The notes beneath the pieces were generated by a model, which saw only the letters and a list, made by a program, of their open reading frames with translations, searched no databases and was not told the origin of the DNA. Below are positions 1-64,000 of a stretch of 64,000 nucleotides of DNA, in pieces. A program made the position numbers and the translations under genes. Each line of letters starts with the position of its first letter. Positions within the stretch are counted from its first letter, which is position 1. The stretch comes from Macrocystis pyrifera (lineage: Eukaryota > Sar > Phaeophyceae > Laminariales > Laminariaceae): the NCBI GenBank assembly GCA_031763025.1, contig JASSKH010000030.1, positions 2,611,197 to 2,675,196 on the forward strand. Direction: 5' to 3'.

Positions 1-827
1 ATGATCGAAGCGACGTGTCGCGCCCAGCCCTTCACCCTCCCGACTATTTCAGCTCAGCCCTGTCTATACCTATCAGCGGCTGCCTCGCGGTGGCGCACCA
101 GCAGTCCAGTGGGGGTCTGGCCGAGGCCGCATGAACGAGCAGCGGTGTTAAGCATGAGGCGAGGGAGGGAAAAGGGCGGCAGTGGCGGCTGCGGCGGCGG
201 CGACGGCAACAGCAGCAGCAGTGGTAGAGACCGAGGCCGCTGGCTGCGGCGTCATCGCGAGATTCTCTGGGCTTGGTACGGCTTGAGTTTGCAAGCGGAG
301 ACCTGACGGGGAATCACCCTCTCATGCATATGATGCTCAGGCAAGAGAAAATTAAGAGCTTTGCGATTGTTGTGTGGTCGTGCGTGCGAACGGCGCGTTA
401 CATTCATTCCCCGCGCGGCGCGCCTGCTCGTTGGCCCGTTTGCGCTTTCGGGAGAGGTGTACAGTACTATAATAATATCTCCGCGACGGCACGCTTGGTG
501 TACAATCCTAGCTGGGAGCTCCAACACGAATGGCCTGAGTAAGAATTGCGACAAAGTGGCATTGCCATCTGCAGTGCAGAAACAGCTCTCAGCGCTTGGT
601 GTCTCACCTCCATGTTCATCCATCCGCTCTCGCTTCAATGCTTCAGCTCTCCTTTTGTTTCTCTCTTTTGCCTTTCTGTCGCTGTGTCTCTTTACCCAAC
701 CCCTCTCTCTCTGTATGTGTCTATCGATCCCCAACTCTCCCACTTCCTCCCCCCGCCCGGTCTTTCTCGATTTATGTATTTGCTTTCCCCCTTCTCTCTC
801 TGTCTTCCCCTCTCTCTCTGTCGTTAG

Positions 828-998
828 AGCACGTTCATGATGATCGGGCGGGACCAGTTGCAGGTGTACCTGTACGCTCTTAACCCTGCCGACGGCTCGG
901 CGCGGAGGAAGAGGATGGAGGAAGAGGTGGAGCACTTCCGCGACCTCAGCGCGCCCACCGCTCTAGAGGCGGCGGCCACCATCTCGGAAGACGGATGA
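828..998 (+). CDS. Terminal exon of an unrecognised plus-strand gene (copy 1)
   Basis: A strong 3' splice site precedes this exon: a ~60-nt CT-rich tract ending TCGTTAG. The exon then stays open for 56 codons to a TGA at 996-998. The peptide begins STFMMIGRDQLQVYLYALNP, continues with a highly charged, helix-prone stretch (RRKRMEEEVEHFRDL) and ends in an Ala-rich tail (residues 41-56). It starts in phase 0. Upstream exons would lie left of the window. I recognise no family and see no signal peptide or membrane segment. The GC-rich codons contrast with the AT- and repeat-rich DNA around it. Confidence 0.6.
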   Translation, partial: STFMMIGRDQLQVYLYALNPADGSARRKRMEEEVEHFRDLSAPTALEAAATISEDG

Positions 999-2414
999 GG
1001 ATAGACAGGTGAAGCGCGCGCCTCACCGCACCGCGCAGGGATGGATTCCCTCTGCAGGAATTTGATCCTGAGAATCGCGAGACCCTATCCCGGTGTAGGC
1101 GTGACTTGGATATCATATTTTTTGAGCGAATGCGAGTTTTTTTTTTTTTTTAGCGACGACGACGAAAAATGGGAACCAGTTTTTCGAGACGGTCGAAACC
1201 TTCTTTGTCTTGATTAACCGATTTTTTCCGTCGGCGGTGTTCATCAAATGTCTCAGGACTTTCTTTTACCCAAAAAATACCCCGGTACGGACCACTTTCA
1301 CTGCGGAACAACCATACACGACCACAGCCAAGCCTATAAGGGCACATGCTCACAGCGGAGCAGGGACCGTCCGTGTGCAGCAGCAGCAGCAGCAGCAGAA
1401 GCAGAAGCAGAACCGGCACAGTGGCGTGGGCACCCAGTGCTGTCGCGGCCGCTGCGCGCACCGTCTGCCATATCCCCAAACACCAACGCACACAAGTTGA
1501 CGATAGTTACAAATACCCTGCTGCGCGAGTTCCGTCCTGGTTCGCGAGTGCCTAGCGACAGCTATACTCTTTGTACCCGAAGCAAGATTTTGTCCGAGCA
1601 ATGAAAAAACAGGGATGGGAGAAGGAATGAAGAACCTAAGCTCACCACACTTGCACATATTAATATGGCTGCCGTTGGTCAATTGTACTCTTTATTAGTA
1701 GTGCACAAAGCTTCACGTTCACTTTCCAGCTCAACTTATGGGAGGTATTGCCCTCAACAGCCCGCCGGACGAGCAGAGTGGCCACAGGCGTCTCTTCCGT
1801 TTCCCCCCCCCGGTGCTTCCCTTCCCTTTCGTCGCAAACACATATGATACGAAGATACGTATGTACGTACACGGTTCAGCGAAGCCTTTTCTGCTCGTTG
1901 ATTTGTATCGAATGCTTCACACTCCGAACGGATCATGAGCTACAGCAGATCACCTATTCCCTCACTTGCCGTTGTGAGTGAATGTGAGGGGATCTGCATA
2001 GTGCAGTTCCAAACGAGCAACAATGTGCTAGACCATGTAGGTTATACGAGTCCCACCCGGCAACATGAGCTATTAATAGGTCACACAAGATCGGGAATAG
2101 ACGTGTCTTGAAATATCTAGATCATGAAGAGGGAATCAGTATTTTGTCCGAGGTGTGGACTGTTTTGCCTCCCCAAAACATTTTTAGTTTTCACTACGAG
2201 GACCATTCACGTACGTATAACGTTTCAGGCGCTTTTACTGTTATTATTAATAACACCACCACGTAGTAGTATTAATAGTAAGCATCTGACATTTTCGTTT
2301 GATTTTTGCTCTGATTCATGAAATATAACATCAGCTACCCGCACCGAGGCACAGTAAATCCAACTGTAAATACTGTTGTGTATCTGGAGGTTTTTATCTG
2401 TCCCATCCTTGCCC

Positions 2415-3720: not shown

Positions 3721-4758
3721 CGCATCGCTACGTAGACCGGCGGCGAGATACCGGAAGCCGAGTGTTGCCTTGTATACAGCGCGTTCCGTGTGCAGAGCTT
3801 TAATTTCGCACGGATTGCGATTATTTCAATTGTGCTCTCTGTGTCACAGTCTGTGACCGTAGCATTCATATCTCTGTAGGACGAAGAATCAGGACGGAAA
3901 CCGGGTGTACTGATGTAGTTGGGCAGAGAAAAAGTGATTTGATCTGAAGACAAGAACGGCAACAAGAGAGGTGTTGAATTGCCATGCCATCAATCGGATA
4001 TTTGCTGCATGCCTCCTTTTTATTTTCGGGATGGTTGACGGGTTCGTGTATTTTTAGCATCTCAGCAGTCTAGATTTTGAATGAGTTCGATCGTCTTCTC
4101 GGCGCTCGCCCGCTTTTTCTCGACAACGGCCTACATACGCTGTGTGTGTGCCAAAAGTTGGACTATGTTTGTTTCGGAAAGCTTCGTATTAATACCATAC
4201 GTACTGTATGTAGCCCTATTATAGACCGGACATTTCCAAGAATCTCACCCTTTTCGGCCTAGGAAAAAAACAACCTTCCCGTCTATTAGTACAGTAGGAA
4301 AAATCGAGGGCTGGAGCACGATCTCACCCCTGCGCGATACCAGAGCGCTTCACGGTATGGTACCATTTTAGCGTATATAGCTGGGCGTGGGGATACCGGG
4401 TACGTATACAGAATGAATATCCGGACTGGACTGTTGAAATGGTGTGAGTAGAGTGTGCTTCCCGGGGGGAGAAGGGGCGATGTTTGTAGGGTTAAACAGG
4501 CGTTTTTGGGTCTACGGTGCGCCGCCGTCATTTCCCGAATATGTGTACAGTACGTACTCGTAGCCATTGAGGGAACAGCCGCTGAGCTTTGCTGCCGCAT
4601 GCCGGTGTCCGCGGTAGGTTTATCCGGAGGGAGGTTCCGCAGGCCTACTGCTGCAGTCATGAGTACGACCCACACCCCGTATGGTCGAGTCGGGTGTACG
4701 TGTGACGTCGAAGAAGTGAATAGTTTTGCTCTTTGGACCCCTACGTACCCCTTGCGTA

Positions 4759-4808: not shown

Positions 4809-5089
4809 TGTGCTGATGTACAGTGCGGCACAAAGAAGGGTCCTGTTTAGGTTTTGCGCCCGAGCCGCACATCCGTCAACAATCAATCGTCAATCACCTC
4901 AAAAAGTAGTATGGAGAGGGATCGATCGGCATTTTGGCTATTAATACAGTACAGTACAGTACAGTACAGTACATCCGTACGACAGTCTAGCTCGGTTGTT
5001 GGTGCCACTACTGTATTGCAAGCAGCAACACGGACGATGACGCACGCATGCATGGATGGATGGATGCGTGGGGCTCACTTCCGTATTTT

Positions 5090-5345: not shown

Positions 5346-5410
5346 CTCGCACTTTCGCCATCGGAAGAAAACTCAGAAAAAAAAACACTATTAATAGTGT
5401 GTAAATAAAA

Positions 5411-6314: not shown

Positions 6315-6426
6315 ATTGCGGGGGACCATACAGTAGTAAATAGGACCGAATACTATGAGTAAAAATAAGGAAACATATAGGTTTTTGTGTGTACCGTAGG
6401 TCCTATTTACTATGTTCCCCCGTAAT
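6315..6426. mobile_element. MITE1 copy a (palindromic, TA-flanked), with internal TACAGTA
   Basis: This ~110-bp near-palindrome runs ATTGCGGGGGACC...CCCCCGTAAT. The consensus arms are about 28 bp (TTACGGGGGACCATAGT... and its complement) around an AT-rich core. Compared with sister copies it carries exactly five extra bases at 6,329-6,335, where CCATAGTAAA has become CCATACAGTAGTAAA. Confidence 0.85.
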
Positions 6427-7136
6427 GCCAATGGCGTTGGTGTCAGGGGTTCGATTCTCCGTACGATGTTTGGAATGTTTATTTTTCAAATAGCACCAAC
6501 TGTCGACGAGACCGCCTGTTATAGCGTGGGCAGGCACAATGCGACCCGACTCGACAAGGGAAGAAAGTGCTGAGCCCTTCTGGCGATAAAAAGGCAAGGC
6601 ACGTACCGTAGTGAGGAGGGAGGAGAAGGGTCCTACTAGTGTACGTGAGCTCGGATCTGACTTACGAATGCGAGGGAGCAGGAGCAAGAAGGGCAGAGAG
6701 AATACCTGGTAGATGAGATGGGAAAAAAAGAAGGGGGGAAAAAAAAAGTGTTCTTCTGGGAATCTGTTTACTTTATGTACCGCTGCCGTGTAGCTGTCAA
6801 ATACTCTGCTTGGTGATGAGCTCGGTGTTTCGTTCGTATCCCCATCGGGGTAACCTTGCGACTGAACCAATAATAGCTGTCACGTTCCTCTACTCGTAAG
6901 GCAGGGTAGAGAACTATTGCTTTTTTGTGCTTCTGTTTCTTTTACCTTTCTTGTGGAAACTGAAGTCATTCCTGTCTTGTTGAGGCATAAGTGAAACTCC
7001 TAGGGCCAAATGTTTTGCGCAGGTAGCCTCTAGAATAACTCCCAAATGGTCCTTTTCGGAGAGTTTTGTGAAGGTCATCATGCTTCAGACGGCGAAAATT
7101 CCAAAGCTATTCGCGGGAAACGTCAAGTCTCACAGG

Positions 7137-7320: not shown

Positions 7321-8489
7321 TTCCCGCGAACAGCCCTGGAAAATTCAGCCAAAACTTGTTGGCCCGGGGACCACAATCACATGTATATGACACGAATATA
7401 GCCTGCACTTGATATGTACAAATCCGTGGTATAACTATGACGTATCATGCGACTGACAAAGTTGGGTATCAACCACTCCGTCGTTCGAGCTCGCTGCTGA
7501 CGCCTTGAAGCTTCTTGTAAAAACGGTAAAAATTGTGCGTTTCATTCGGAAACTTTTCGGCGCGTCGTTCTCGCTCGGTGACCTTGTATTAACTTGCATT
7601 CCCCTCCTCCTGTTGTTGACCCCGTTGGATTGTGGCAATACATGTGTCATCCTCATATTCCGGGGATTTGATGCTTTCTGTACTTCTTATTGTACGCACC
7701 AGGGTCTGGTGGTGTTTATCTTGCGGGCAGTCCGGAAATAAATCCTCTAGACAGTTAGTGTGGTTGGCTTTACGTCGACGGCTGATGTGGTTTTGCTCCT
7801 TTCATGCCTGCCTGACCATAACTATTGTACTACATACAGTACTAATAGTATTCGTGCTCGTTCAGCGTCTGTCGCGCCGAAGATCTATGGCCTATGTAAT
7901 ACTAGTACTCCAGGCCTAGTAGTGTTTAGCCACGAATACCCACCAGCGTTGATGCCACGGGTTCAATACTCCGTACGAGTATAAAAGAAGTGTGGTATAA
8001 GCAGTACTTTATACCAGGGTAACCAAGGTATATTTCGAAGTACGAGTATGTGTGTTCGTCTTTTTCTCGAAAGCCACCAACTGCCGAGAGCGCCTACGGT
8101 ATTACATATTAAATCGCGTAGTGCCAGGTAGGTGTTATGCATGGTTTGAAGCGAGTCCACGAGGGAAGACAGTCAGTTGCGCTGAACTCTTCTCGAGGAA
8201 AAAAAATGCAACTCGCCTACCACCGTGGTTTGGGGGCCCCGGGGGGAAAAGGACCTGGTATGTGATTATCTGCTTTGCGACTACTCCTACCGTATATACG
8301 GGGAGGGCGCAGGAGAAAGAAGGGCGACGTTATTGCCGGCACATATTACACGTACATCGGCAGTGGATGGACTGGAAAAAGGAACGACGAGAAAGAACAA
8401 ATCGCGCAACGAAAAACGATTTCCATCTCCGTCCCACGGAAAGAAAAAAGAAGAACAATAATATTTTACACGTTTCAGTTACGTACGAA

Positions 8490-8590
8490 CACGTCAGCTG
8501 TGACTTCGACCGATGGATTGGTTAATACTCAACTTTCTATGTATATTTCGTGCACGCTGCGTGATACGTCCGGCTCGCTAGGTTTGTACC
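8490..8590 (+). repeat. Interspersed repeat R3 (copy 1 of the large duplication)
   Basis: ACGTCAGCTGTGACTTCGACCG...TTAATACTCAACTTT...GCTGCGTGATACGTCCG. Sister copies are at 13,153-13,245 and 21,505-21,600; a weaker one is at 9,270-9,345. No coding potential. Confidence 0.55.
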
Positions 8591-9523
8591 TGGTATTATT
8601 TCATACCAGGTATCCCTTCACTTATCATCATGTATATGTATGGTGTCAGTGAATTCGACTGTCGATGTACCGGTAGAAGTTAATGCTCAGTTTCACAAGT
8701 TGTATGGTAGGTAGGCCGTTCGTGCGTTCGTGCGTGGTGTACTACTTTCATTCCTCGTCCCTCGTGAAGGATGTATCATGTATCACACTTTGGTTGACGA
8801 ACAAAAAAATGTACCAGTATCATCTGCAACGTGAACGCTCTCTTCTTGTGTTTCGTCGATGAAGGCCTCTCTCTCAGCTCGACGTGTTCCGTACTCACTG
8901 CTCGCTCTCGCTCGGGACGCTACTATAATGTTGTACGTACAGCAGTACCGGTAGTAGCTTCCATGTCGTAGTCTTTGTGTGCTGGGATACTGGGATGGTC
9001 GTACGAGTATGTCGTACGTCAAAAATGGTGAAACGTCAAAAAAATGAACCGTTCGTGATTGCGCCGCATATTCTTGTGATGTGGTAGATGTTTGATGATG
9101 CGGGTGTGGCGCACAGCGAGCACATAGCAGCTGCGAGATCCGCCAAGTTGTTCGACACCATAGTTTGCAAGCTGTGTGGTTCGCCGGTGTCGTGTGTTCT
9201 ACTTTCCTCGTGAAGGATAGAAAGTTGAAAAAATATCAAATTTTACCTATGAATACATGTTTTTAGCTGTCAGCTTCAGCCCCAGCTGCGACCTCGATCA
9301 AATTGGTCGAATATGTACGGTATTAATAGTACTCAGCTTTGCAAGCTACTGCTGCTGTACGTGATACGTGATATTTGCCAGGTGCCCGGTAAATCGGTCG
9401 TGCCTGTCGCAGGCCTCTCAGCCCCTCTTGTTGAGCCTTCGATGGCGGCGGGGGGGTCCACAAGCCACATATATTTTTATATGTAGTATCTATACCTCCT
9501 GTATGCTTGTATACGCAACACAT

Positions 9524-9633: not shown

Positions 9634-9739
9634 ATAACGGCGGACCATAGTAAACAGGACCAAATATTGTTAGTAAAAACAGGTAAACATACAGTCTTTT
9701 TTTGTACCATAGGTCCTATTTACTATGGACCCCCGTAAT
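9634..9739. mobile_element. MITE1 copy c
   Basis: Left end ATAACGGCGGACCATAGT and right end ACTATGGACCCCCGTAAT, followed by A. The core is the usual AAATATTGTTAGTAAAAA block. The left arm is somewhat diverged. It lies just downstream of a CAG microsatellite. Confidence 0.85.
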
Positions 9740-10185: not shown

Positions 10186-10489
10186 TCAAATAGGTGCATG
10201 CACCATACTCCAGCAGAGTAGATAGGTGCACACACAACAGCAGTTTATGTCACGGCGTGGAGTAATACTACTATTAATACTACCTCGGCTGTGGAGCTGC
10301 ATGCGACCTGAGCCCCATGGCCGACGCCCCGGTGGTCTGTTAATAGCGGTTCAACTACAGTACAGCAGTACTACATACAGCAGTAGTACTACTGCTGTAA
10401 GAGTCAAGGTCGTGAGTGCGAATCGTGCCACGCCACGCAGGATATATTCTTGTTGAAGAAAGGACTGCCACAGGTACAGCACTTTTACT
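10186..10489. other. Segment present in copy 1 only
   Basis: Copy 2 jumps from GTGTGATGT directly to TTACAGAAAG. The extra 303 bp contain a dense chain of TA-bounded words (10,361-10,399) and one tRNA-T-arm-like stretch (GAGTGCGAATCGTG). It could be an insertion in copy 1 or a deletion in copy 2. Confidence 0.8.
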
Positions 10490-10829
10490 TACAGAAAGTG
10501 CCTATTATCATGGCGTGTGGATGCACAACAATTCGACGTGAGTCGACGCCGGGAGAAAATAAATGCTGGTGGGCTCTTCCCGCGATAAAAATCGAGGCAC
10601 GTGCCGTACCGTAGCGGGGGGGGTGTCCGCTATATGACCATGTGTGACCATGCTATTAATGAGGGATCGCAGCACGAAAGGGAGGGAGCTGGAGAAGTAG
10701 GGCAAAGACAATAAAAAATACTCGTAGACGGGATGGAAAAAAGCAGAAAACATAATGTCTGCCGCCTTGAGCTTGCCCACCTTGCGCGTGCTTGCCCGAG
10801 ACACCCTTGGGAAATTGCTTGGTGGCAAA

Positions 10830-12028
10830 GCAATCGTGCACCAGCATACCTGGTACTATTTAATACTGTACTGTGTATAACCAACGTCAATGCAAGACAA
10901 AACGCGTCGGGCACGAGCGGAGTGTTCCGATACAGTATCAACCTGCTTCAACCAGCTCTTTTAGGTCTACAGATTGAACATCATCAACAACAAGAGCCCT
11001 TCAGCGTAGGGTATAAATAGATCAATGCGAGCACAGCAAGTAAGTACCTGGTAGTAATAATAATAGTAATAATAGTATGCCAAGCAAGCCTATTCATAGC
11101 TTTCTTTCGTATATTTGAGGTGGTTACAACCACGGAGTGAGAGCCCTTCCTTGCTGCTGACGGTGTGGCGGCGTGACGGCGATGGCCTTTGACCCCACCC
11201 CGTAGTCGAACGCGCCCCGTGGTGCTTCGCGCTTGCTGCAAGCAATGTCTACCTGGTTGGTGAAAACCCGACGTGCTCCGTCCCGGCCCTGTAGGGGTGC
11301 AAGGGCCCCTTATGTATGGTATGGTCATACGAGTACGGCCATGCATGGCATGAATGCGTACACCCTCACGTCGAAGGGAGATACGAGAGGGCTCGTAACT
11401 AAGAAAACAAGAGCATTCATGAAATCATAGCCCAAATTTCACCTTGTTCCATATCGTCCTTGGTCCCTGGTAGCCACGGCTAGCGTGCAGCAGGCAGCAG
11501 GAGCGGTCCGCGATCTCCTGCATGAGCTTCGACGCTGTCGCGAATTAATTGCAAACCACGAGCTACCACAATCAGTAGTAGTAGTAGTAGCATCTTGGTA
11601 TATTTTGTTGCATCGTACGTGTTTCACCGCACGCCAAAAGCGCGTTTTTTATCATATTATCAATAAGAGATTGTCGAAAAAATCAAAAGCGAGGGGCCAA
11701 AGGCAACATACATGATGAATTTGGTTGCGGTTGAATGTGTGTATGTTTCATTAGAATGTAGAGTTGAGAGCGTTTTGATTGGCCTACACTACTAAGTGAA
11801 ATGTGGTGGACGAAGAGGAACATCCGTCTGCAGTAAAGCCTGCCCAAGCACCAGGTATGTAGACCCATCACTCATCATGCACGCCCCCCTCCCTATCATG
11901 TTCACTCTCGACCGCTCCCCTTCGCTACCCGGTACTACTTTGGTTCACCTGTGACACACAGAAGAGATCCACCGCTTACTACCTCGTACCACGACTGCAC
12001 AGCTTCTTCGCCCAGAATAGCTACAACA
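10830..12028. other. No supported gene; R1 fragment and possible 5' UTR
   Basis: Contains a reverse-orientation R1 repeat (about 11,130-11,370) and a GTA microsatellite (11,575-11,590). An acceptor-like CCTGTGACACACAG at 11,948-11,961 could end a 5' UTR intron of the 12-kb gene. No recognisable core promoter element. Confidence 0.5.
11130..11370 (-). repeat. Interspersed repeat R1, reverse diverged copy
   Basis: Matches R1 at GCTTCGCGCTTG..GCAAGCAATG, GTGAAAACCCGACGTGCTCC and TACGGCCATGCATG. The best copies are 39,765-40,440 and 61,785-62,330. Confidence 0.65.
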
Positions 12029-12859: not shown

Positions 12860-12934
12860 TATCAATAGTTTTTTACGCGATTTTATCAATGCATTCAATT
12901 GCACGACGCTGCGGTGCGGAGGTTGGTGTTGGAG

Positions 12935-13420: not shown

Positions 13421-13559
13421 AGAAAAAAACTCACAGCGAAAAGCCGTGATTATTACCTGGCACCAGGTATGAAGGTATGCTGTCGTTTGGTACATGCGCA
13501 CATGTCATACCAGGTACCCGTTTTTTTTTTTCGTTTTTCTCGGGTATTATGTGGCACAG

Positions 13560-21600: not shown

Positions 21601-22384
21601 CAAGTGTTACGATAAGCCGAACGCGCGTATTCTATTTGTAATTCCTTGTCAAGGATATACGCCAGTGGCTCCCCCGGATGCTGCCCGGGTCAACAGGGCA
21701 ATTTACGTAATCATTCTGCGCACTGATACTACAAAACCCGAACAAGGGAGAATGATACGACGTTGCAACATGTGGAAACCTTTTCATTTTACAAATATTT
21801 ATGTATTGATTGAGTGTTGTTGAGTTTTAGTATAGTATGGTTCTAAATGTGAGTGATTCTCCCGGGGATGAGCTGCTGCTGCTGTTATTGCTGCTGCTGC
21901 TTTGATGCCTAGCTTTTATTTGATATGGCTCGAGGTAGCACCTACTGTAAATCAGGCATCGGTGTTCGCGACACTATATATATATATATATATACCTGGT
22001 ATGGTTTCCTAAACTCTACCAGGTACAAGTTATTATGTGGATTGTGATACCTTGTGGCGCCGTCGAAAGTAAGAACGTTTCGCCAATAATAATATAATGC
22101 TATTAATATTAATTACCACAGGTACATTTATGCTTTGCTTTTTTCGCGTTTGGCGCGAAGGGTACATATTGGTTGATAAAACGCTCACTCCGTGTCTGCC
22201 TCTTCGCATACAGCAGTGTAGCAGCCTTCGCTTCCGAACTCGGCAGACCACAAACTGGCCGCCCCGCCAGACGATGGACTCCTTTGCAACGCGCGCTTGT
22301 GCCACAGGCGTACAGCAAGATGGAAAAAGATCGGGGTGTGTGGGTGTGTGAAACGGAAAACCCGAAAACCCCAACACTTTGGTG

Positions 22385-23303: not shown

Positions 23304-23419
23304 ACTACGGGGGTCCATAGTTAACGGGACCAAATTTTTTGTTAGTAAAAATAGGTAAATGTATACCAGGTAGGTTTTTATCTATACCATAGGTCCTATT
23401 AACTATGGACCCCCGTAAT
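23304..23419. mobile_element. MITE1 copy e, with internal TACCAGGTA
   Basis: Ends ACTACGGGGGTCCATAG...CTATGGACCCCCGTAAT. Where sister copies read AAATATATAGGTTTTT, this one reads AAATGTATACCAGGTAGGTTTTT. That is a TA replaced by TACCAGGTA at 23,364-23,372. Confidence 0.88.
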
Positions 23420-28884: not shown

Positions 28885-28917
<33 letters not shown>

Positions 28918-37011: not shown

Positions 37012-37044
<33 letters not shown>

Positions 37045-51600: not shown

Positions 51601-54600
51601 ACCGAAATATCCGAGCATATCACCGAAAGATCTGGACCCCTGAAATATCTAGTAGACCCCCGAAAGATTTTGTAGACCCCCTCGGAAGATCTAGCAGATC
51701 ACCGAAAGATCTATTAATAGTGTATCACCGAAATATCCGAGTATATCACCGAACGATCTAGACCCCTGAAATATCTAGTAGACCCCCGAAAGATTTTGTA
51801 GACCCCTCGGAAGATCTAGCAGATCACCGAAAGATCTAGTGTATCACCGAAATATCCGAGTATATCACCGAAAGATCTGGACCCCTGAAGTGTCTAGTAG
51901 ACCCCCGAAAGATTGTGTAGACCCCCCGGAAGATCTAGCAGATCACCGAAAGATCTCGTGGACCCCCGAAATATCAATAGACGCCCGAAAGATCTATAAT
52001 AGTAAAAGCGAGGAGTTCTACGATAGAGGTAGCACATTTCCGCTAAAGTGTTTTCTGAATGACGGGGTTCCTTAACTCAAAATCGTCGGAATGCCAATCC
52101 TGTTTCGAAAAATGACGTTTTTGTATACCTGGGCCGTGGGATTATTCATTGGGATGCAACTATTAATAGGGTTTTTCTGAAATCAGTTTTCGGGTGAGGT
52201 ATGGAGCTCCTTAAGGTCAAGTGAGGAGCCTCAGAAAAATGAGTGTGAACCTCTATCGTAGAACGCCTCAGACCCCCGAAAGATCTGCAGCAGATCACCG
52301 AAAGGTCTGGGCCCCCGAAATATCTATTATAGTAGACCCTCGAAAGATCTAGTGCATCACCGAAATATCTAGTAGACCCCCGAAGTATCTAGATAATGGA
52401 ATGGAGATCTGTCTCTGACTTGTTCCGATATACCGAAACTAACAAGGAAACTATAACAAGACAAATGCCCCGAGCCATCGACCATCATGGCTCGTGTTGC
52501 TCGTCCTCCGCAATGTAAACAAAGCACAGCGAGTGACGCATCACGCTACGTACGGAAGAGGGGTGCACCCTGCGTTTCTGCTGTTTGTGAGGAGCCCACT
52601 AGCGTTGAAGAGCCAGCCAGCCTGGCCTCTACACGTACTCCCATAGAAATAAAAAATCTGGCTTGTTTGTCTGAGTTGAAGAATTATTACGGGAAAAATT
52701 TGAAGGGCTCTCAGAACTGGGATTTTTTGCCGAAAACCCACGATTTGCTCGAGGAGACTGTCATAAACACCGGTAGACTCCTCAGGATGCCCCCCGTGGT
52801 TTTGGGAGAGTTTTCCCAGTTCTGTGACAAACAGGCCTTATTTTTGACACTCCAAAGAAAACTGATTGGCTGCTCCAAAAATCAAACTAGGACTCTCGAG
52901 AAACGGGAATATATTCCTGAAAGCTCTAAAAAAACTCAGGGGAGCATTCTGAGGAATCCACGGGCGGTTTTGGCTGTCCGCCGAGTAAAACGCGTATATT
53001 CGGCCTGAAAACCCAGTTCTGAGAGCTCAGAAATATTTTCCCTTGATATGGTCTTAACCCGACAAGGAAAAAAAAAAGTGTTAACCCTTTTAGGACCGCA
53101 GTCCCGTGTAGGGGTCAAACTACTTAGAATTTGACTGGTCTGCCCCCTAAACGGGATTGCAGTTCTAAAAGGGTCAATAAATACCAGGGGAAAATCGATG
53201 ATCTGTTCAGGGTGCGAACGCATCGATAGAAATTTTGGGAGGGGGAATTCGGTACGTGGATTTATACCGGAACCTCGGGATATATTTTAGGCGGGCGTAA
53301 CCGAACTTATACCGGAGTGTCGGGTAACGGGATCGACGGGTAACGGGATCGAGTTTCGTACCGAACCTTAACCTTGTGCCGGGGGGTGTTCGGTAGGGTA
53401 TTGAGGCCGTACCGAAACTTTACCGAATATCTAGGTAGGGTACTTACCGAAAAATACCCTCCGGAGTACTTTGGTACGTACCCTATTACGGAGGAACCTA
53501 GTCAATAGGACCTACGGTACACACAAAAGCCTATTTACCTATTTTTACTAAAATAACAATATTTGGTCCTATTTACTATGGTCCCCCGTAGTAGACCGAA
53601 TCACACCCCTTGTACCCTTCGGAACTGACCTTTCCCTTGTACCACTTGTCCTCCGTATTCTCGACGCTGAAAACGGGCTGCGCGAACTCGTACGGCGGCC
53701 TTCCCTTCCAGTCCACCTCCTTAAGCTGATACAGATCGCTGAGCGATTTCGTTGTCGTCAGACGATGCCCAGTTGTAAGGCGGGAGGGGTGGAGCGAGGT
53801 GGGGCCGGGTGGGGTGGGGTGGTGAGGTGGGATGGGGGTGGGGTGTGGTGGGGTGGATGGGGTGGGGTGGGGTGGGGTGGGGTGGGGGGCGGGTTGGGTG
53901 GGGTGAGGTGGGGTGGGGTGGGGAGAAAGTGGGATGACCGGGGGGTGCGGTTGGGGAAGAGAGGGGGGGGGGGGGGAGGCGAGGGGGGGGGGGGGGGGGG
54001 GGAGGTCTCACACGTACCAGTCTGTCCCGAAATACAAGCCTGGTTCGGGCTTTTTGCGGCATAAATTCTGCTGTTTGACGTTTATTGCAACCCCGTTTTT
54101 TTAATCGGATTCGGGTGAATCGCAACGTAACTCCAAAATCCGTCTTTTTCCAAAAAGTCGAAGTGACACCCCCCTCAGCGCCGCCGCAAGGCCCAGACAA
54201 CAGGCCTCTCTCGCGGGGATCGCCGGTTGAAGACAATCCCATCTTGTATTTGAGATGCCCGGCCCTGGAAGTGCTACCCCGAAGGCAACTCGAAGCAACG
54301 TCAGCGAAAAAACAAAGGCACCGACTCGTCGAGCATCTGCTCAAAGGCAGCAATAAGAACAGGAAAATCGATCAGGGCGACCTGAAGAAAGATGCTGCAG
54401 ACTTCTGTTTCACTTGATTACAGGGTGTTTTCTAATCAGGCTTGTGTTCTGAGGGGTGGACAGAGACCTTGATAGTAGATCTTTATGGGGGTTTTGTGTT
54501 GGGTGCCTGAAGCCGAACCCTAACCCGAACCCGAACCCGAACCCTATGCCAGTGGTCAGTGCTGGGATGCTGTGCTTGTTAAGACTCTAGGTTGGCTCGG

Positions 54601-57600
54601 CCGGCGTGGATGCTGAGCTGGGAAGACTCTAGGTTGACTCGGGATGACTCGGGATGCTGTGGCTGGGAAAGACTCGAAAGTTGATTAAGCCGCGTAAAAC
54701 ATACCCCTAGCCAATCAGAGTGCCTAAAATTAGCTACCTCAGGAAGATCTACTATCAAGGTTTGTCCACTACTGTATGTTCTGGTCATTTAAAACCAGGC
54801 ATATATTTCGAGACAGACTGGTACTGATTTTGACGAAACCATTGATACGGGGGTCCATAGTTAATAGGACCTATGGTGTACATAAAAAGCTATATATTTA
54901 CCTATTCTTACTAACAATATTTGGTCCTGTTTACTATGGTGCCCCGTAATAGGTGTTTCTCAGGTGGGATGGAAAGCTGCAACAATGAGCATTCGATTAG
55001 CTAGGGTCGGGGTGTGAACTGGACATTGTCAAAAAGGGGGAAAAAAAATCCAGGAAAAAGCACAAAAAAACGCGGTTCAACAGTACAGTATGTATGACCG
55101 TAACATAGCAGTGTTTCGTGGGTGCTCCTTCGTCGATAAATGCCAGACTCTGATGCTGGCCTCGCTAGGCGGGTCGGGGGGAGTAGCAGGTGGAGGTGGT
55201 GAGTAAATGAGAACCAACTTTAGTTAAGATGGCGTAAAAAGTACAGGGATAATGTAAGCAGGTTATAAGCAGGGTTTTGCACGGGTCATGACCCCAACCC
55301 GCGGGTGGAACCTTGCATAAAATGGCTACAATTGCGGAGCTGTATACCGCTGTTTTTAACCTATCGCCCAATGTCTAAAAGTACCTGAAAAACGTTCCCG
55401 AAGTCATTGCTGCGGGCCAGTACACTAACAGCAGGTGTTGTATGGACGATGGAGCGTTAGCCAATCAGAGCGAGGGTCACTAAGCCTTCTCCCGAGTGCT
55501 GCTGTGGGTGTACCTCAAGACCCAAGTTGCTAAAAATCGGTGGTGTACCTTTTTTGGCTATTTCCCGACAAAAAAGCACCTAAACAAGTTCTCGACGGCT
55601 TTGCTACGGGCCAGTAAACCAAACCCAGGTCTAGTTTGTACGATGGAACGTTGGCCAATCAGAGCAAGGATCAGTACGCTTTTTCCCGAGTGTTATTTTC
55701 GGTGTACCTCAAGACTAAATGGCTACACGTACGGAGGTGTACGAGTACGTTTTTTGGGGGGGTCAAGCTTAGTACCTGAAAAAGGTCCCGATGTCTCTGC
55801 TGCGGGCCGTCTTCGGCAGCCCTTCCACGTAGACGGCGTAGTCTGTTGCCGTGATCTTGCCCATTCTCACCTGAAAAACAAACAAACAAACAACAAGGCA
55901 AAATATTCACGCAGCTTTTTGTTTGTTTTTCGTTTCTTCAGGTAAATATCAAATAGCATGGAACACCTATTGTACGGAAACCCAATAATCCATCGCTGTT
56001 ATCTACTGCGCATTGATGATCCTACATTTTTTTCAAGTAGTTTGTCTCCAGACGCGGGTGGAGTCAGTTCTGAAGGGGTTGACCTTTTCGCCATCGGTAC
56101 ATACATACATACCGCAAAAGTTATCCGACTCTATAGTTCCAAGTAAATTGTCCCCAAAACATGGGTGGGAGGAGTTGTAGAGGCCTTTCCGCGGTGCTCA
56201 GGAATGGCTTCCCCTTCCTCCCTCGCACGTTGGAAGCACATTTTTGAGAGAGAAAGAGATACAAAGAGAGCGAGCCGAAAGCTAAGCTAGTCTCACCATC
56301 TACACCTATGTATGATTGATAAAAATCAAACAAATTTATATAAAAAATCCTCAGCTGTGTGATCGAGGACCTACGTCGAAGCCCATGTTTGCAAAGTGTG
56401 TGACACGGGTACTTCTATCGCGCGTACGAAGTTCCAGGTACGGGTTTTGTGTGACCTCTGAATGTGCTGGTGCCACAGCGCGTGGGTGGGAGGAGTTGTA
56501 GAGGAATTCGCAGTGGATGTCCCTTCCTTCCTTGCACGAGGGAAACACAATGAGAGAGAGAGCCGACAACTATTCCGACCCGCGGCGCCTGACTGTTCCG
56601 AAATACAATCAACTTTTGTACGTTCATATTGAACCCAAACGAAGCTTATGTTTTGAGACATGGCTGTACAACAAAAGCGCGAGTTTGGATCCGACGTCGA
56701 TGCATGCGCACGTGTCCAATCGGTGTGCGTATATGCCTACGTATGACACCACTCTGTCCCATAATACAAGAAATGTCTTTAAAATAATTGTTAAACCAAA
56801 CGGTGCTTATATTTCTGTACAGAGTTGTTCGTATATATCGTTGTGAAACTGAAGAGCAAGAAGAAAAAAACAGAACAAAAAACTTGCGATTGGATGACCC
56901 TCGTCATAGAAGTCATGTTCGCATGCAGATGCAGATGGGAGAGTCATTCGCACCTCGGAACAGCTCCTCGATTCCCGCTTGATGATCTAGATCATTCAGG
57001 GGAGACAGATCCCTAATCTGTACCACTCGTTTCTAAACCCGAATCATAAAAAAGGACCGTTTTCATTTTTGCGACGAATTTGGGTGAAACCGATGTGGTT
57101 GGTTTTCTTGTGTATGTTTCCTATAAATAAACGACCCCAACCCGCGAAACTTTATATCTTCCTGAGAAGGCCGTAGAAAAAGAAGCGGTCACAATGCCTC
57201 TTTTTTTAACCGAATTGTTCTCAGGTTGGATTAACTGTTACAGCAGGGAGGAAAGGTTCCACGGGTTGAGGTCATTGTAGTATAGGAAATAGACCTCAAG
57301 AAATCCTACCGAATCGATTCCGACAAAACTCCTCGCAAACATCCTACTTTTTTGTTTTTTAATCATCACTTTTACTTTCCAGCCTAACTCGTAGGAGGTT
57401 TTAACCTCAGCGACCTTCTGGACAAGCCGTGGTCACAGGTGCCATCCTTTTCCCCCCCCCCCCGGTACGTGCCTATATTTCTTATCGCGCATAGGGTTCA
57501 GCATTTCTACTGCTCGTAGATTTTCATCGAATGCAGCTATTACGGGGGTCCATAGTTAACGGGACCAAATTTTGTTAGTAAAAATAGTTAAATATATAGT

Positions 57601-60600
57601 TTTTTAATGTATACCATAGGTCCTGTTAACTATGGACCCCCGTAATAACTGACGCTCTCGCGCTTTCCGCTAATCAGTTTTTATGCAAGAAAAAATCCCT
57701 ACGAGCATGCACTCGGTGACACTTGAACCCATGAAATTGATCTTGATAGGCACGCGGACCACCTACCAAACCACCGGGAACGCCGGCGCTACTACTAATA
57801 CATAAACGTTATTATACTTCGAGACAGAGTGGTAGGATCTATTAGTAGCTCATTTTGCGGGGTCGGAGACGTGTGACCTTCATGATCTAAAGCAGTAGGA
57901 AGTGCTTCCTGGGTTGAGATCTGTACTGTACAGATCCAGTCGCGCACAACCTCTGAGCGGCTGGTTACTTGCAGTAGGGTATATAGGGTCTGCTGTAGAT
58001 CGCGATGGGTCCGACGCGAGTGGAGGTTTTCGAAACAAACTAAACGCTGCCATTAGCATGTACCTACATGGAAGTTGGGGTGACGTCTTAACGAAACTTT
58101 GCGTACATTCTTATTTGTTGTTGTTGTTGTGTTTGCCATCCGGACTTGTTTAGCATCAGCTTCAACCTTGATCACTCGGGGGGGGGGGGAAAAAACATTC
58201 CCCGAAAAAAGAGGAAAAACATGGGAAGAAACCGAAACATATTGTATAATGTCTGCCCTGCGGGCAATCCCTGAAACAAGTACGTACACGGTTACGCTTT
58301 CGACCTCGAACTTTGACTTTGATGCGAAGTTCGGGCTTGAACTCGAGTTTAAAGTTGATAAGAGCATGTCCATGTGTACAAGTTAGAGCACTCTTCTTGA
58401 CGTTTGGTTTTAGATCTTTTTTTTTTTTTTACAATATGTCGGAGCTAAAGCTTCAATCTAGAACTGCAACCACGGAGCAGTGTTCAGGGGCAGACTACTT
58501 CGCTTTCTAGTGTCCAATATTGTTTGCGGTAGCTAAAAAGATCTACTTCTCTGGCCGCCGGGAATATAGCAACCCTTTTATTTTCACATCAGAGTACAAA
58601 CGGGCATTACATTCCCGGCGTGAGTGGCGCCACCTCGTAACAGTCTACACCTTGGACAGACCACGATCACGATAACTCTATTCACAGATAGATCATTTAG
58701 ATCCTAGCCTGCTTTCATGATATATTGAGCAGGATCTGTACACTCGTCGGACAGATAATCCACAGATAGATCATCTAGATCCTAACCTGCCGTTAAGATA
58801 TGTTGAGCAGGATCTATACGCTCGTCGGACGGATCAGGATCAACAGATAGATTATCTAGATCCTAACCGTTATGAGATGTTGTGCGGGATCTGTCCGCTC
58901 GTCGGACAGATGAGATAGATCATCTGCAGATAGATCATTCAGATCCTAACCTAACCGGCCGTTATGAGATGTTGTGCGGGATCTGCCAAGTACAAATCCA
59001 TCCAAGGAACAATTTCCTACCCGGCATGTACCATGCAGATTACACTGCTCCCACCCCGACAACACGAGCCAGGACACACATACAGACATATCACCATGAA
59101 AGATCTAGCTCATGAAAGTCAAGTAGTAGGTACCGATGACAATTTGTCCGAGGCGTGAAATTACAAAATCGAGGCTAGCCCCTCAGGTTTGTCGCCGCCG
59201 GCTCACCCGCTCCACGGCACGATTAGTCCTCAGCCTCCAGTACACGATGGCCAGGATGAAAAACACCGAGCTCAGGCACTCGAACGCGGTGATGTAGTAC
59301 GACACCTCCAGCGACGTGAACTCCGTCCCGAAGACATCCTTGCATCCGAAGGCAGACAGGGAGATTCACAACCACCGATGGTTGGGCTTAGGCGTAGGCT
59401 TTGGTTTAGGCTTTGATCTGGTCTCAGGCTTAGGCCCAGGCTTGAGTTTAGACGTGGGGCTCGGAGAATGAAGGTGGGGGGTGCGGGTGTACTACTGTAT
59501 CTTTCATGCATGGCCGTGGTCGTATGACCGAAGACCCTCGCATCCCTACAATGCCGGGACGGAGCACGCCGGGTTTTCGCCGACCAGGCAGCCATTGCTT
59601 GCACCAAGCGCGAAGCGCCGTGAGGTGTCCGGCCAGTCGCATGAAGGGTGAGCTGCATCCCACGAAGAGCCGCTTGCGAGGCGGACTTTCTTGCATGTGG
59701 ATGACAGCGTCGTATCAGTGTTCTCTGTCTTGCGGCGTAGCCAGGCGGGGGGGGGGGGGGGGGGGGCACCGTCTGCGTACTTTACTTTAGCCTTTTCAAC
59801 CGAAAGGAATCTCAGCGTGGGGCTCTAGGAGGTGGGGGAAGGGCGAGGGTTAGACCTCACGTCATGCATGGCCGTGTAGTCGTATGACCATAGACTACAC
59901 CTGTTTTTTTTTGTTTTCAATAGTCCGAACAGGAACAAATATCAGAATTGGGCTCGGAGGAGGCAAAAGGAAAGGACGGGAGGGGGGAAGGCGACATCTG
60001 AGTATTATATAAATGGCGTCAGCCGACAACGATTTTGGCATGGGGCTTAGAAGAGGGGGGGGGGGGGTGGGGGGGGGGGGTGGTAGGGAGGCGGGGGTCA
60101 ACACCTGAGTTTTTGTTTTCAACATTTCCAGCAGACAGAGATGCCAGCGCCGGGATCTAGGACGGTTGGGGAGAGGGGAGCGGGGGGGGGGGGGGGGGCA
60201 GCACCTGAGTTTCTACCGCCGTGGAATTGCAGCCGAAGGTGTACTCAGTGATGGTTGCATCCTCGTCGCAAGGAAACCCTACGTTGCCGACCATCGTGCT
60301 CGACATTTTGTTGAAGTAAGTCACCTGCGCGGACGCAACACACGACGCACGGCGCAGCACTAGCGTTGTGTATCGATGTTGGAATCGAGCTCAATACGAT
60401 ACCCCGACAAACACAGAAACAAAAACAAAAACTTGGCGATGCGATATCGTATACGATTTCGATGTATCTATTGATGTGTATATATGTACACAATAAAACA
60501 CGGGGGATGCCAGGGGATGGAGCGGCCGAAACAAAACACGTTCGATGCGAGATATGATCGAAAGTTCGATAAATCGATATATCGAAAAAATCGTATGATA

Positions 60601-63363
60601 CATTTGTCGAATGCTCGATATTTCGACCTATCGAAACCTTCGATACGATATGCGACCGGTCACAAAGCAATGACGACAACAGCGCAGAGCGAATATCTCG
60701 TCCACGCCAGCTGCACAAACCAATCGAACACACAGCCAAACGCGGATAATGCGGCGTAACTACAGTATTGCCATCTCCCGATACACGGCACACTGGCACA
60801 TACGCACGCACATCACGTTTTTGCTCATAGATTAGTGCATCTTCTTCTCTTTCCATCCGAAAAAGGATCGAATACATACACCGTTCGGTCCGATTTTCAT
60901 CCGAATGCCCTCACATGGTCTCTATCATACCATACGTACAGCAAGCAGTATCTTTTGTCACCACCACTCCGAAAACAACTACCACTCCGGACGGAGATAC
61001 AAGAAAATCTTGGCATGAATATTGGCGTGTAAAAATTCCTTACATTTCCGCCCAGAGTGATACATTTTTTTTACTGGTATCACTTTTCCGCTTTTCGAAA
61101 AACGCCTCCGTACAGAGATCATGTATCGCTCCTTCCTCCCTCCAGGGGACAACAGAGCGGGAGCCGGCTGGCTTCTTGTCAAGATTTGGATTTTCGTCAA
61201 CAACGAGCGTCAACCCTTCTCAATATAATACCGCAGTCCGCTTCGGGGAGAAACTACTAGGAACTAGACTGGTTTGTGCCAAAAACGAGACTGCGGTTCT
61301 AAAAGGGTTAATTTCGCGCAAGAGGTGAGATCGTTCTTTGTCAGCGCTCCATTTTTCCAGGACACGGGAAGGTTGTTATTAGCAGTAGCGAACAACGATG
61401 TTGAGGTGTTTTCGGAGAAGGTCTGCTCGGGAGAGAAAGAGAGAGAGAGCCCTCCGAAAAATTCACGTTCGAGCTTTTTTCAGCACCCTTACCTTTTGCT
61501 GTCGAGAAAAAGCGAGAGCTGCTGAAAAAACGGTTACACCCCTTGTGCGCACTCGACGCTCGTTTTTACGGTAGCTGTACAGTAGCTGCTCTGAAGGGTG
61601 TCGCGGTACGGGGTAGCAGCACGCACATTTTCTGATAATTTTCTGAGATTTTTCGCAACTTCGAGGACCTCTCTATGTCTCTGCGTATCACCCCAGAAAC
61701 ACTGATACATTATGGAACACCGTGCGCTTAGCCCACTGAACAACTTACTCCACTAACCCTACTGTATGTACCGGGGGGGGGGGTGTACTCGATAAGAGAG
61801 ATGTACTCGATCTCATGCATGGCCGTAGTCGTATGACCATAGACCCTCGCATCCCTACAATGCCGGGACGGAGCATGTCGGGTTTTCACCGACCAGGCAG
61901 GCATTGCTTGCACCAAGCGCGAAGCGAAACGTGAGGTGTCCGGCCAGTCGCATGAAGGGTGAGCTGCATCCTACTAAGAACCGCTTGTGAGGCGGACTTG
62001 CATATGGATGACAGCTTCAATGAGTTAGTTTAATTTCCGGTGTGGCACTTCTAGAGACAGCAATGGGAGTACTATGTAACTGCCTCTTGGGTGCCGTACC
62101 TTGAACACTACGTGATACGATCAATTCCCTTGTGCGGAGTAAAGGTTCTTTACTTCGCACAAATGATCTAACTAGACGACCAGCTGTGGGCGACCGCCAA
62201 AAAAAATAAATAAAAAAAAAACGGTAGCCTGATTGTCTAGCTCACGTAGAGGCATGTTTCACAGTGTCGTTGCCAACCGACGCCAACCCAACCCATATAT
62301 ATATATGGGGGTGTGCCGGGGGGGGGGGGTACATAGTAATTGTAACCTACGACGGACCCCAAACGCCATGTACTGCGATGTCCCTCAAAATAAGGAACTT
62401 TTTTTATTAAATAATAGTATAAAATGTTTCTCTTATTTAGGTACATGTTGATATCCGCTTATGCTCATACACCATTTTTGTTCTGAATCGTATTGATAAT
62501 ATGTTTTCACCGTAAATATATGTAAAACAAACATGCCTCCGTATTGTAGGTAAATTGTTAAAAAAGAACGCAAAAACCGAAAATGGGATTCCAACGATAC
62601 TAGTGTATAGTGTACTGCAGAAGCTGTAGGTCCTCAGTTGAGGGCCCCCTCTCTTAAACCCCTGTGGGGGTGGCGGCTTACTCTCTGAGCTCCTCACGTG
62701 CGGAGCTCAATATCTCTCGGCCCAAAACACGCACGACTGCGAAGAAGTTGTTTCGCGCAACCAGATCAGGATTCTGTATGCGCTATTAATAGTCCTGAAA
62801 CAAGTAGTCTAGTAAAAACGTGATATGCTAGCCGGTATGCTAATAGGTGCTCACTTGAGGCGCTCAACCGGTTGGAAAATATTGCCTCAGAAGGTAAAAA
62901 GTGCAACCTACCTACGATCGAGCCGTTGGATGTGTCTAGTACAACGTTATACCCCTCCCTTAGCCCGTTTTAAGACTGCAGTCCCCTTCTGGGCGCAAAA
63001 CACTTGGAATTAGAGTCAGGTTTAGGATTATGGGGAGTGCAACACTGAAAGGGTTTAACCGTAGCATCACGCACCTACCCAAACAGTACTCGTATATATA
63101 TACGTGTAGGTTTTTAATCGTCACTTTGACTTTCCAGCCTAACTCGTAGGAGGGTTTTACCCTCAGCGATCTTCACGAGTACCCCTAACTACCGTTCCCA
63201 TCCCTGCCGCCGCTGCCGGTTGGCAAACCGGGGCTTCAAGAGACAAAATACGTTGAATGGAAGGCTTGGCCGTTCCTGACACGATAGCCGTACTGAGGGC
63301 TGTGATTGGTTCAACGCACACATATATATTATATAGGCTGTAATTGGTTCAACTCACACACTC

Positions 63364-63974: not shown

Positions 63975-64000
63975 CTGGAAGGGTGAAGAGGGGGGAGGGA

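What the first reader, a model, noticed from the sequence alone, without database searches (positions are those of the whole stretch)
1..64000. Four TA-bounded micro-words recur genome-repeat-wide and behave as TA-site insertions
By eye, TATTAATA occurs at least 15 times outside copy 2 (for example 2,071; 4,187; 4,939; 5,389; 9,321; 10,272; 16,304; 17,237; 22,101; 51,712; 52,161; 62,784). TACCAGGTA or its complement occurs at least 14 times (6,703; 8,587; 8,604; 10,847; 11,045; 13,508; 14,546; 17,436; 21,993; 22,017; 23,364; 39,488; 40,113; 50,438). TACGAGTA or its complement also occurs about 14 times, and TACAGTA/TACTGTA is common. Random expectation is about 1-2 each for the 8-mers and below 1 for the 9-mer. 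Paralogous repeats with and without a word differ by the word minus one TA. That is the form left by Tc1/mariner-type excision (TA, a few terminal bases, TA). The inference is that this genome is littered with footprints of several TA-targeting transposon families, most copies gone.
Basis: partly seen in the sequence, partly recalled or inferred. Interest (0 to 1): 0.9.

Follow-up and report, generated by a model that had tools for sequence, protein, structure and literature searches.

The report
Giant kelp genome's transposon excision scars
Hundreds of thousands of tiny TA-bounded words in the giant kelp genome look like scars left when jumping DNA elements cut themselves out, and likely parent elements of two of the words are still there.

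Summary
The window lies in a 537,376,219-base, 223-contig genome whose statistics match giant kelp, Macrocystis pyrifera. Genome-wide: TACC(A/T)GGTA 121,279 sites (reversed-word control 2,421), TATTAATA 94,130 (7,522), TACGAGTA 84,876 (16,978). New here: TATTAATA has a parent, a ~105-bp MITE with TA duplication and TTACGGGGG ends (55 places in ~273 kb); TATTAATA flanks match its insertion-site preference (0.70; held-out MITE ends 0.74; 2,000 random TA sets at most -0.225). TACGAGTA has a likely parent: two old ~720-bp TA-bounded elements with CGAGCTGGGCCA ends, one in this window. One 805-bp element with CCAGTCTG ends may be the CC(A/T)GG parent. TACC(A/T)GGTA sits at one TA of a MITE motif in 598 copies against 26,735 empty ones, in both A and T forms. 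CAG has no parent seen; CGAG has no with/without pair. Best reading: end-joined excision footprints of several Tc1/mariner-like families, two of them now rare.

The parts
1658..1665 (.). TATTAATA word; copy 2 of the duplication reads TATTACTA here
2071..2078 (.). TATTAATA word inside a repeat; a paralog lacks TTAATA (with/without pair)
2245..2252 (.). TATTAATA word
2270..2277 (.). TATTAATA word in GTAGTATTAATAGTA context
4187..4194 (.). TATTAATA word
4939..4971 (+). Mixed chain TA-TTAA-TA-(CAG-TA)x5; copy 2 (from 32432) has one CAGTA unit fewer
5389..5396 (.). TATTAATA word
9321..9328 (.). TATTAATA word
10272..10279 (.). TATTAATA word
12854..12861 (.). TATTAATA word
16304..16311 (.). TATTAATA word
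17237..17244 (.). TATTAATA word
22101..22108 (.). TATTAATA word
51712..51719 (.). TATTAATA word in a 119/245-bp tandem array; an aligned unit lacks it (with/without pair)
52161..52168 (.). TATTAATA word
62784..62791 (.). TATTAATA word
6703..6711 (-). TACCTGGTA word
8587..8595 (-). TACCTGGTA word
8604..8612 (+). TACCAGGTA word
10847..10855 (-). TACCTGGTA word
11045..11053 (-). TACCTGGTA word
13508..13516 (+). TACCAGGTA word
14546..14560 (+). Mixed chain TA-CCAGG-TA-CTCG-TA
17436..17444 (+). TACCAGGTA word
21993..22001 (-). TACCTGGTA word
22017..22025 (+). TACCAGGTA word
23364..23372 (+). TACCAGGTA nested at an internal TA of a MITE copy (23306-23418)
39488..39496 (+). TACCAGGTA word
40113..40121 (+). 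TACCAGGTA word in a repeat also found at 50438 and in L022; L022 has an uninterrupted TA here
50438..50446 (+). Same repeat position as 40113, opposite orientation: reads CCTGG where 40113 reads CCAGG
7974..7981 (+). TACGAGTA word
8041..8048 (+). TACGAGTA word
9002..9009 (+). TACGAGTA word
11328..11335 (+). TACGAGTA word
14637..14644 (+). TACGAGTA word
20609..20616 (+). TACGAGTA word
26398..26405 (+). TACGAGTA word
49933..49940 (+). TACGAGTA word
55740..55747 (+). TACGAGTA word
4555..4562 (-). TACTCGTA word
6891..6898 (-). TACTCGTA word
10719..10726 (-). TACTCGTA word
42001..42008 (-). TACTCGTA word
63087..63094 (-). TACTCGTA word
6329..6335 (+). TACAGTA nested in a MITE copy (6316-6425); the query copy lacks CAGTA here (with/without pair). 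All other TACAGTA/TACTGTA sites are listed
15210..15936 (.). Likely parent of the CGAG word: 723 bp between two TAs, inverted ends CGAGCTGGGCCA (exact over 12); an old relative lies at L019:9079-9797
54015..54823 (.). Candidate parent of the CC(A/T)GG word: 805 bp between two TAs, inverted ends CCAGTCTGTC(C/T)CGAAATA, 28 of 31 bases inverted-repeat match
6316..6425 (+). TTACGGGGG MITE copy (carries a CAG word)
9637..9738 (+). TTACGGGGG MITE copy
23306..23418 (+). TTACGGGGG MITE copy (carries a CCAGG word)
44083..44189 (-). TTACGGGGG MITE copy
44626..44730 (.). TTACGGGGG MITE, copy used as query: 105 bp, TA on both sides, first 18 bases identical at both ends
48313..48419 (+). TTACGGGGG MITE copy
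48741..48845 (+). TTACGGGGG MITE copy
53486..53590 (-). TTACGGGGG MITE copy
54846..54949 (+). TTACGGGGG MITE copy
57540..57645 (+). TTACGGGGG MITE copy
27512..38009 (+). Second copy of parts of window 1-10829 (two aligned pieces, 0.44% substitutions); repeats many of the words and two MITE copies listed for copy 1

Best explanation
The words are excision footprints. A TA-targeting cut-and-paste element inserts at a TA and duplicates it. When it leaves, its transposase cuts a few bases inside each end, so a few terminal bases stay with the flanks as 3' overhangs. End joining of the overhangs gives TA-(terminal bases)-TA. TATTAATA is the footprint of the ~105-bp MITE family with TTACGGGGG ends (TT from one end, AA from the other). 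TACGAGTA is the footprint of a ~720-bp family with CGAGCTGGGCCA ends (a four-base overhang CGAG pairing at its outer bases). CC(A/T)GG fits a four-base overhang CCAG meeting CTGG over CAG/CTG, as an 805-bp element with CCAGTCTG ends would give. C(A/T)G is the Sleeping Beauty type. Shown: the genome-wide excess, TA-exact with/without differences (TTAA, CCWGG, one clean CAG), the MITE and its shared target preference, elements whose ends begin CGAG and CCAG, a separate CCWGG target preference, and A and T forms of CCWGG at fixed sites. Inferred: transposase class, overhang lengths, end joining, the link of the CCAG element to CC(A/T)GG, and that CAG and CGAG work the same way.
For: Counts over control, genome-wide: 121,279 v 2,421, 94,130 v 7,522, 84,876 v 16,978. 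Bond test of 3,667 words: TTAA, CAG, CGAG and CCAGG lead the words with three or more inner bases. Paralog insertions: all 4 TA-form 7-base ones are CC(A/T)GG; 3 of 5 TA-form 6-base ones TTAA; 2 of 5 TA-form 5-base ones CAG/CTG, one in a TACAG array. MITE: 55 places, 43 full length, 32 of 43 with TA exactly at both ends. Flank score under the MITE target model: TATTAATA 0.704, held-out MITE ends 0.742, 2,000 random TA sets mean -0.78 and maximum -0.225. CCWGG preference R-TA-YNNNNT: A at +1 1%, T at +6 60% of non-chain sides. MITE motif with the word at one TA: 598 copies, control 0; without it: 26,735, control 213. Of the 100 rows listed, 30 read CCAGG and 70 CCTGG in the same orientation (counted by eye). 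CGAG parent: the 14-mer TACGAGCTGGGCCA starts all four ends of two elements 719 and 727 bp long (TAs included), which are also 70% alike over 161 internal bases. CAG equals the published Sleeping Beauty footprint TAC(A/T)GTA (PMC3432063, passages).
Against: No CAG-ended parent was seen in about 273 kb. CGAG has no with/without pair and no significant flank preference, and a satellite adds to its count (L011, 9 sites). The CCAG element is a single copy in the sample; its outward flanks fit the CCWGG preference at +1 on both sides (C, C) but at +6 on one of two (G, T), and its ends read CCAGT, not CCAGG. CAG enrichment is about 3-fold and mixes with CAG/CTG repeats. Inner-permuted controls reach 27 for the CGAG word (44 sites) and 49 for the CAG word (129). 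In one search dinucleotide AC scored 13 against 14 for TA among 5-7-base insertions, so TA stands out by which words occur, not by raw number; three of the four 7-base cases lie in one repeat family. Under the MITE model CAG flanks score -0.218, also just above the random maximum. No transposase is tied to a word: DDE_3 0 hits; Transposase_1 0 hits, with no control genome ringing; DDE_1 39 hits, no TA-bounded inverted ends in the three copies scanned. Some of the 598 filled copies may be a MITE subfamily that amplified with the word inside. Canonical footprints are not universal for these elements: HSMAR2 left non-canonical ones (PMC3770610, passages).
Confidence: 0.86

Rival explanations
1. 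The words rise only through base composition, simple repeats (TA, CAG, ACT runs) and slippage.
For: ACT/AGT, CAG and TA runs are strongly over-represented; TACAGTA is only about 3-fold over expectation; window 4945-4973 is a TACAG run differing by one unit between two copies. Inner-permuted controls reach 49 for CAG and 27 for CGAG.
Against: Order-3 Markov still leaves 57 v 5.8, 60 v 1.9, 44 v 10.7, 129 v 45.3; of 29 inner-permuted controls of TACCAGGTA only TAGGACCTA (36, a string also found inside the MITE) exceeds 4. Flanks are diverse, and TTAA and CCWGG carry their own preferences.
Confidence: 0.05
2. The words spread as passengers inside larger repeats (satellites, segmental duplications, a word-bearing MITE subfamily), not by separate events.
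For: TACGAGTA occurs in a satellite in L011 (9 sites) and in clusters at C4 and C5; the window's 10-kb duplication doubles many sites; 598 motif copies share one word position; three of four CCWGG paralog cases lie in one repeat family.
Against: One search counts distinct contexts, duplication removed. With the L011 satellite masked 44 TACGAGTA v 10.7 remain. CCAGG and CCTGG both occur at the fixed MITE site and at the shared repeat position, so at least two origins each.
Confidence: 0.05
3. TATTAATA marks empty or precisely repaired TTAA targets of piggyBac-type elements.
For: The core TTAA is the piggyBac target (table in PMC3878927, which gives no footprint).
Against: The insertion is 6 bases with TA repeated, which precise piggyBac excision does not make; the flanks fit a MITE with TA duplication and TTAC ends.
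Confidence: 0.02
4. The palindromic words are conserved regulatory or protein-binding motifs.
For: They are near-palindromic and very common.
Against: They vary by presence or absence between paralogs at exact TA positions, also inside MITE copies; TACCAGGTA shows decay, about 56 excess one-mismatch neighbours to 58 excess exact sites.
Confidence: 0.02

Closest known systems
Tc1/mariner excision footprints (Sleeping Beauty TAC(A/T)GTA; Hsmar1 T(T/A)A)
   Same: TA duplicated, a few terminal bases kept, central A/T ambiguity; the CAG word is identical to the Sleeping Beauty footprint (PMC3432063 and PMC3878927, passages).
   Different: Those are experimental excisions. Here about 300,000 sites of three words were counted in one genome (controls about 27,000), and three of the four words are four or five bases long. 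The passages read give 2-3-base overhangs for Tc1/mariner; CGAG and CC(A/T)GG fit four-base overhangs better.
Stowaway MITEs and their mariner partners in grasses
   Same: TA-duplicating MITEs whose excision usually leaves a short footprint with end bases (PMC4561436, abstract).
   Different: TTACGGGGG ends instead of the grass Stowaway consensus (recalled). In a rice comparison over several superfamilies only 8 of 94 excisions left just the two target copies; the others came with deletions or filler (PMC4423477, passages). Here exact short footprints are very numerous; the share of exact repair was not measured.
Mariner-Tc1 families of the brown alga Ectocarpus
   Same: Brown alga with 17 Mariner-Tc1 families, 11,912 copies, mostly non-autonomous MITEs (PMC12477816, passages).
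   Different: The word footprint and the name Macrocystis do not occur in that paper's main text; its named MITE is 217 bp, the kelp one about 105 bp. Sequences were not compared.
Minos (footprint TACGAGTA, recalled)
   Same: The CGAG word is what I recall as the Minos footprint, and the kelp elements' ends begin CGAG.
   Different: Recalled only; my search (three papers listed; Minos passages of one read) gave no confirming passage. Apart from CGAG no likeness to Minos was tested.

Membership tests
Tc1/mariner superfamily (TTACGGGGG MITE) | TA target-site duplication | tested here: met
   32 of 43 full-length copies have TA exactly at both ends
Tc1/mariner superfamily (TTACGGGGG MITE) | Terminal inverted repeats | tested here: met
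   window 44624-44732: first 18 bases identical at both ends; other copies similar
Tc1/mariner superfamily (TTACGGGGG MITE) | Footprint of TA, terminal bases, TA | tested here: met
   TATTAATA fits ends TT..AA; its flanks match the MITE target model. Excision itself was not observed
Tc1/mariner superfamily (TTACGGGGG MITE) | Mobilised by a DDE/D transposase of the superfamily | tested here: inconclusive
   DDE_1 39 hits, DDE_3 none, Transposase_1 none with no control ringing; none linked to MITE ends
Tc1/mariner superfamily (CGAG family) | TA-bounded element with inverted ends matching the word | tested here: met
   two elements, four ends TACGAGCTGGGCCA
Tc1/mariner superfamily (CGAG family) | TA-exact with/without differences | tested here: not met
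   0 CGAG cases among 14 TA-form insertions of 5-7 bases
Tc1/mariner superfamily (CC(A/T)GG family) | TA-bounded element with inverted ends matching the word | tested here: inconclusive
   one 805-bp element with CCAGTCTG ends; needs a particular overhang overlap to give CC(A/T)GG
Tc1/mariner superfamily (CC(A/T)GG family) | TA-exact with/without differences | tested here: met
   4 of 4 TA-form 7-base insertions; 598 filled and 26,735 empty motif copies
Tc1/mariner superfamily (CAG family) | TA-bounded element with inverted ends matching the word | tested here: not met
   none convincing in about 273 kb; rarer parents not excluded
piggyBac | TTAA duplication and footprint-free excision | tested here: not met
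   MITE duplication is TA; insertion is TTAATA
PIF/Harbinger (Tourist) | Three-base TNA-type duplication | tested here: not met
   complete copies read TATTAC..GTAATA; only TA is a direct repeat
Grass Stowaway MITEs | CTCCCTCC-type terminal repeat (recalled) | tested here: not met
   ends are TTACGGGGG

The most novel reading that the evidence does not exclude
The CC(A/T)GG and CGAG families inserted on the order of 100,000 times each and were almost wholly erased by excision without lasting reinsertion, leaving a genome-wide scar record with few elements (60 scars to one candidate element, 44 to two, in the same 272 kb). Because a fresh scar TA-CCAGG-TA satisfies that family's own target preference (R-TA-YNNNNTW), scars seed new insertions next to themselves and grow into chains (5 chains in the sample against 0.24 expected by my arithmetic).
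Probability: 0.2. Interest if true: 0.85.

Novelty: new variant of a known kind. Interest (0 to 1): 0.7.

Why it matters
Excision is normally invisible in a genome. If these words are footprints, kelp keeps a countable record of hundreds of thousands of excisions, so excision history, target choice, end-joining outcomes and the past of families that are now rare can be measured from sequence alone. The self-matching target of the CCWGG scar would also explain chained scars.

Tried and rejected
Composition and slippage as the whole cause. piggyBac and Harbinger readings. One search also listed TACAGTAGGTGCT and TACCTTGGTTTTA at four places each; one search shows no shared downstream sequence for the first and one local array for the second. 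(TACCWGG, TACGAG, TACTCG not followed by TA) was cut in output. Tying a transposase to a word: pogo-type loci L027-L029 gave no TA-bounded inverted ends, and L028-L030 are copies of one duplicated block. TACGACTA looked like a further word but its flanks are conserved, so it sits in a repeat. Genome-wide counts of TACAGTA, of the MITE end, of CCWGG chains and of the CGAG element end were asked for but did not complete (tool busy); those figures are sample-based.

Dropped rows: window copy 2 was removed and its rows in 58 and 97, but not. L001-L004 (fetched because they hold the CCWGG word) were left out of the sample statistics except; L027-L030 were left out, but L027-L029 were. The L011 satellite was masked only. 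One search dropped homopolymer and dinucleotide-run insertions (321 to 267). One search tried 19 control words; two with under 30 sides were not printed, and the 17 printed are 16 distinct.

Literature: searches listed no report of excision footprints in kelp or other brown algae; eight papers were opened (passages or abstracts), the rest seen as listings.

Full report
Where this is. The window is contig C212, 2,611,197-2,675,196, of a genome of 537,376,219 bases in 223 contigs. The giant kelp paper reports 537 Mb, 35 scaffolds plus 188 contigs (223), N50 13,669,674 and 50.37% GC (PMC10498591, abstract and passages); contig C196 is exactly 13,669,674 bases long. I take it to be Macrocystis pyrifera. 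The longest open frame listed in the window is 318 aa; there is no tRNA and no Rfam match at gathering score.

Observation. All 26 coordinates named for the two main words are right. Window counts far exceed Markov expectation, though a 10-kb duplication inflates them. In the window plus 18 stretches of 10 kb, TATTAATA is the most enriched 8-mer by ratio among those seen at least 20 times (43.7-fold). Whole-genome counts against the reversed word: 121,279 v 2,421 (TACCWGGTA), 94,130 v 7,522 (TATTAATA), 84,876 v 16,978 (TACGAGTA, both strands summed). TACAGTA could not be counted genome-wide; the sample gives 129 against 45.3 expected.

No choice of words. For 3,667 words w of 1-9 inner bases I asked whether TA on the left and TA on the right go together more than each alone predicts, counting distinct contexts once.

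Insertion at TA. All-against-all alignment of the sample gave 321 distinct inserted stretches of 3-12 bases, 267 after removing homopolymer and dinucleotide runs. Those of TA form and 5-7 bases number 14: 4 CC(A/T)GG (all 4 at length 7), 3 TTAA, 2 CAG/CTG, none CGAG, 5 other. AC-form insertions number 13, so TA does not lead by raw number; the identity of the words carries the evidence. Three of the four CC(A/T)GG cases lie in one repeat family: window 40113 and 50438 hold the word at the same repeat position, one as CCAGG and one as CCTGG in repeat orientation, where L022 has a plain TA, and L022 holds it at a neighbouring TA. The fourth is inside a MITE copy. Among 103 hits of the MITE (window copy 2 and L001-L004 included) four copies carry CC(A/T)GG at or next to one internal TA, and one, seen twice through the duplication, carries CAG. 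Genome-wide the motif AAATATATAGG occurs 26,735 times (control 213), and the same motif with the word at its TA 598 times (control 0); membership of each in the MITE was not checked. Of the 100 rows listed, 30 read CCAGG and 70 CCTGG, counted by eye. Both forms in one orientation mean at least two origins and fit either-way repair of a central mismatch; how many are separate events is not shown.

Parent of TATTAATA. One high-copy TA-bounded family stands out: about 105 bp, TA-TTACGGGGG(A/T)CCATAGT...-TA. In about 273 kb there are 55 places, 43 full length, 32 of 43 with TA exactly at both ends, median identity 85% to one copy, which extrapolates to about 108,000 copies (my arithmetic). TT kept from one end and AA from the other gives TATTAATA. 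Insertion-site flanks of this MITE favour TAC-TA-GTA, and so do the flanks of TATTAATA. Under the MITE's target model TATTAATA flanks score 0.704 bits, held-out MITE ends 0.742, 2,000 random TA sets average -0.78 and reach at most -0.225, CCWGG -1.115, CGAG -0.862, CAG -0.218, and 17 printed control rows (16 distinct words) -1.42 to 0.03.

Parent of TACGAGTA. The 14-mer TACGAGCTGGGCCA occurs four times in the sample, as both ends of two TA-bounded elements: window 15,210-15,936 and L019:9,079-9,797 (723 and 715 bases between the TAs). The two are also alike inside, in opposite orientation: 161 bases at 70%, E 1e-17, with further short collinear pieces, so this is an old family. Neither has a stop-free frame above 84 aa. 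A four-base overhang CGAG would give CGAG or CTCG. Two elements against 44 footprints in the sample. A with/without pair for CGAG is still missing, its flanks are not significantly biased, and a satellite inflates its genome count.

CC(A/T)GG. It has its own preference, R-TA-YNNNNT (A at +1 in 1% of sides; T at +6 in 60% of non-chain sides), and homochains: 5 in the sample where 60 x 60 / 14,835 TA sites would give 0.24 (my arithmetic). The scar TA-CCAGG-TA itself satisfies that preference. One-mismatch neighbours of TACCAGGTA exceed expectation by about 56 against 58 for the exact word, roughly 10% divergence, so the scars are old. A candidate parent lies in the window at 54,015-54,823: 805 bases between TAs, inverted ends CCAGTCTGTC(C/T)CGAAATA, 28 of 31 bases matching. 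Overhangs CCAG and CTGG overlapping over CAG/CTG would give CC(A/T)GG. It is one copy; its flanks fit at +1 on both sides and at +6 on one. A related end lies at window 57834.

CAG equals the Sleeping Beauty footprint (PMC3432063, passages) but is the least enriched and has no parent here.

Mechanism. For Tc1/mariner elements, excision leaves 2-3-base 3' overhangs, and joining gives the overhang sequence flanked by the target duplication (PMC3878927, passages). The overhang geometries above are inferred. Transposases: DDE_1 (pogo-type) 39 hits, many with open frames, domain confirmed in two; DDE_3 none; Transposase_1 none, uninformative. No transposase is linked to a word.

What is known and what is new. 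Footprints of TA elements are well known, and Stowaway-like MITEs are stated usually to leave them (PMC4561436, abstract). Brown algae have many Mariner-Tc1 MITEs (PMC12477816, passages). I found no report of genome-wide footprint accumulation in kelp in searches. The scale, the match between scar flanks and MITE target, and scars far outnumbering the CGAG and CCAG elements are the new parts.

Noticed in passing
window 27512-38109: Copy 2 of the 10-kb duplication (0.44% substitutions) ends at 38009, directly before a 100-N assembly gap at 38010-38109; it may be assembly redundancy rather than a real duplication.
   Followed up: partly
L028, L029, L030 (C32, C202, C194): Pogo-type DDE_1 transposase genes lie in nearly identical blocks (97.7-99.7%), several on small contigs, one about 12 kb from the end of C194; L027 is a 72% relative with LLMNG where the others read LLMDD.
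   Followed up: partly
L011:5800-6650: Satellite-like array with TACGAGTACGATATCGTACTTGAG units in both orientations; similar clusters of TACGAGTA at C4:161275-161908 and C5:159589-159888.
   Followed up: no
sample-wide: TACAGCAGTA (39 v 15.3 expected) and TACCAGTA (28 v 10.8) are also enriched and may be further footprint forms; TACCAGTA would fit the CCAG-ended element.
   Followed up: no
window 51447-51975: Nested tandem array with 20-, 119- and 245-bp periods, part of which carries TATTAATA.
   Followed up: no
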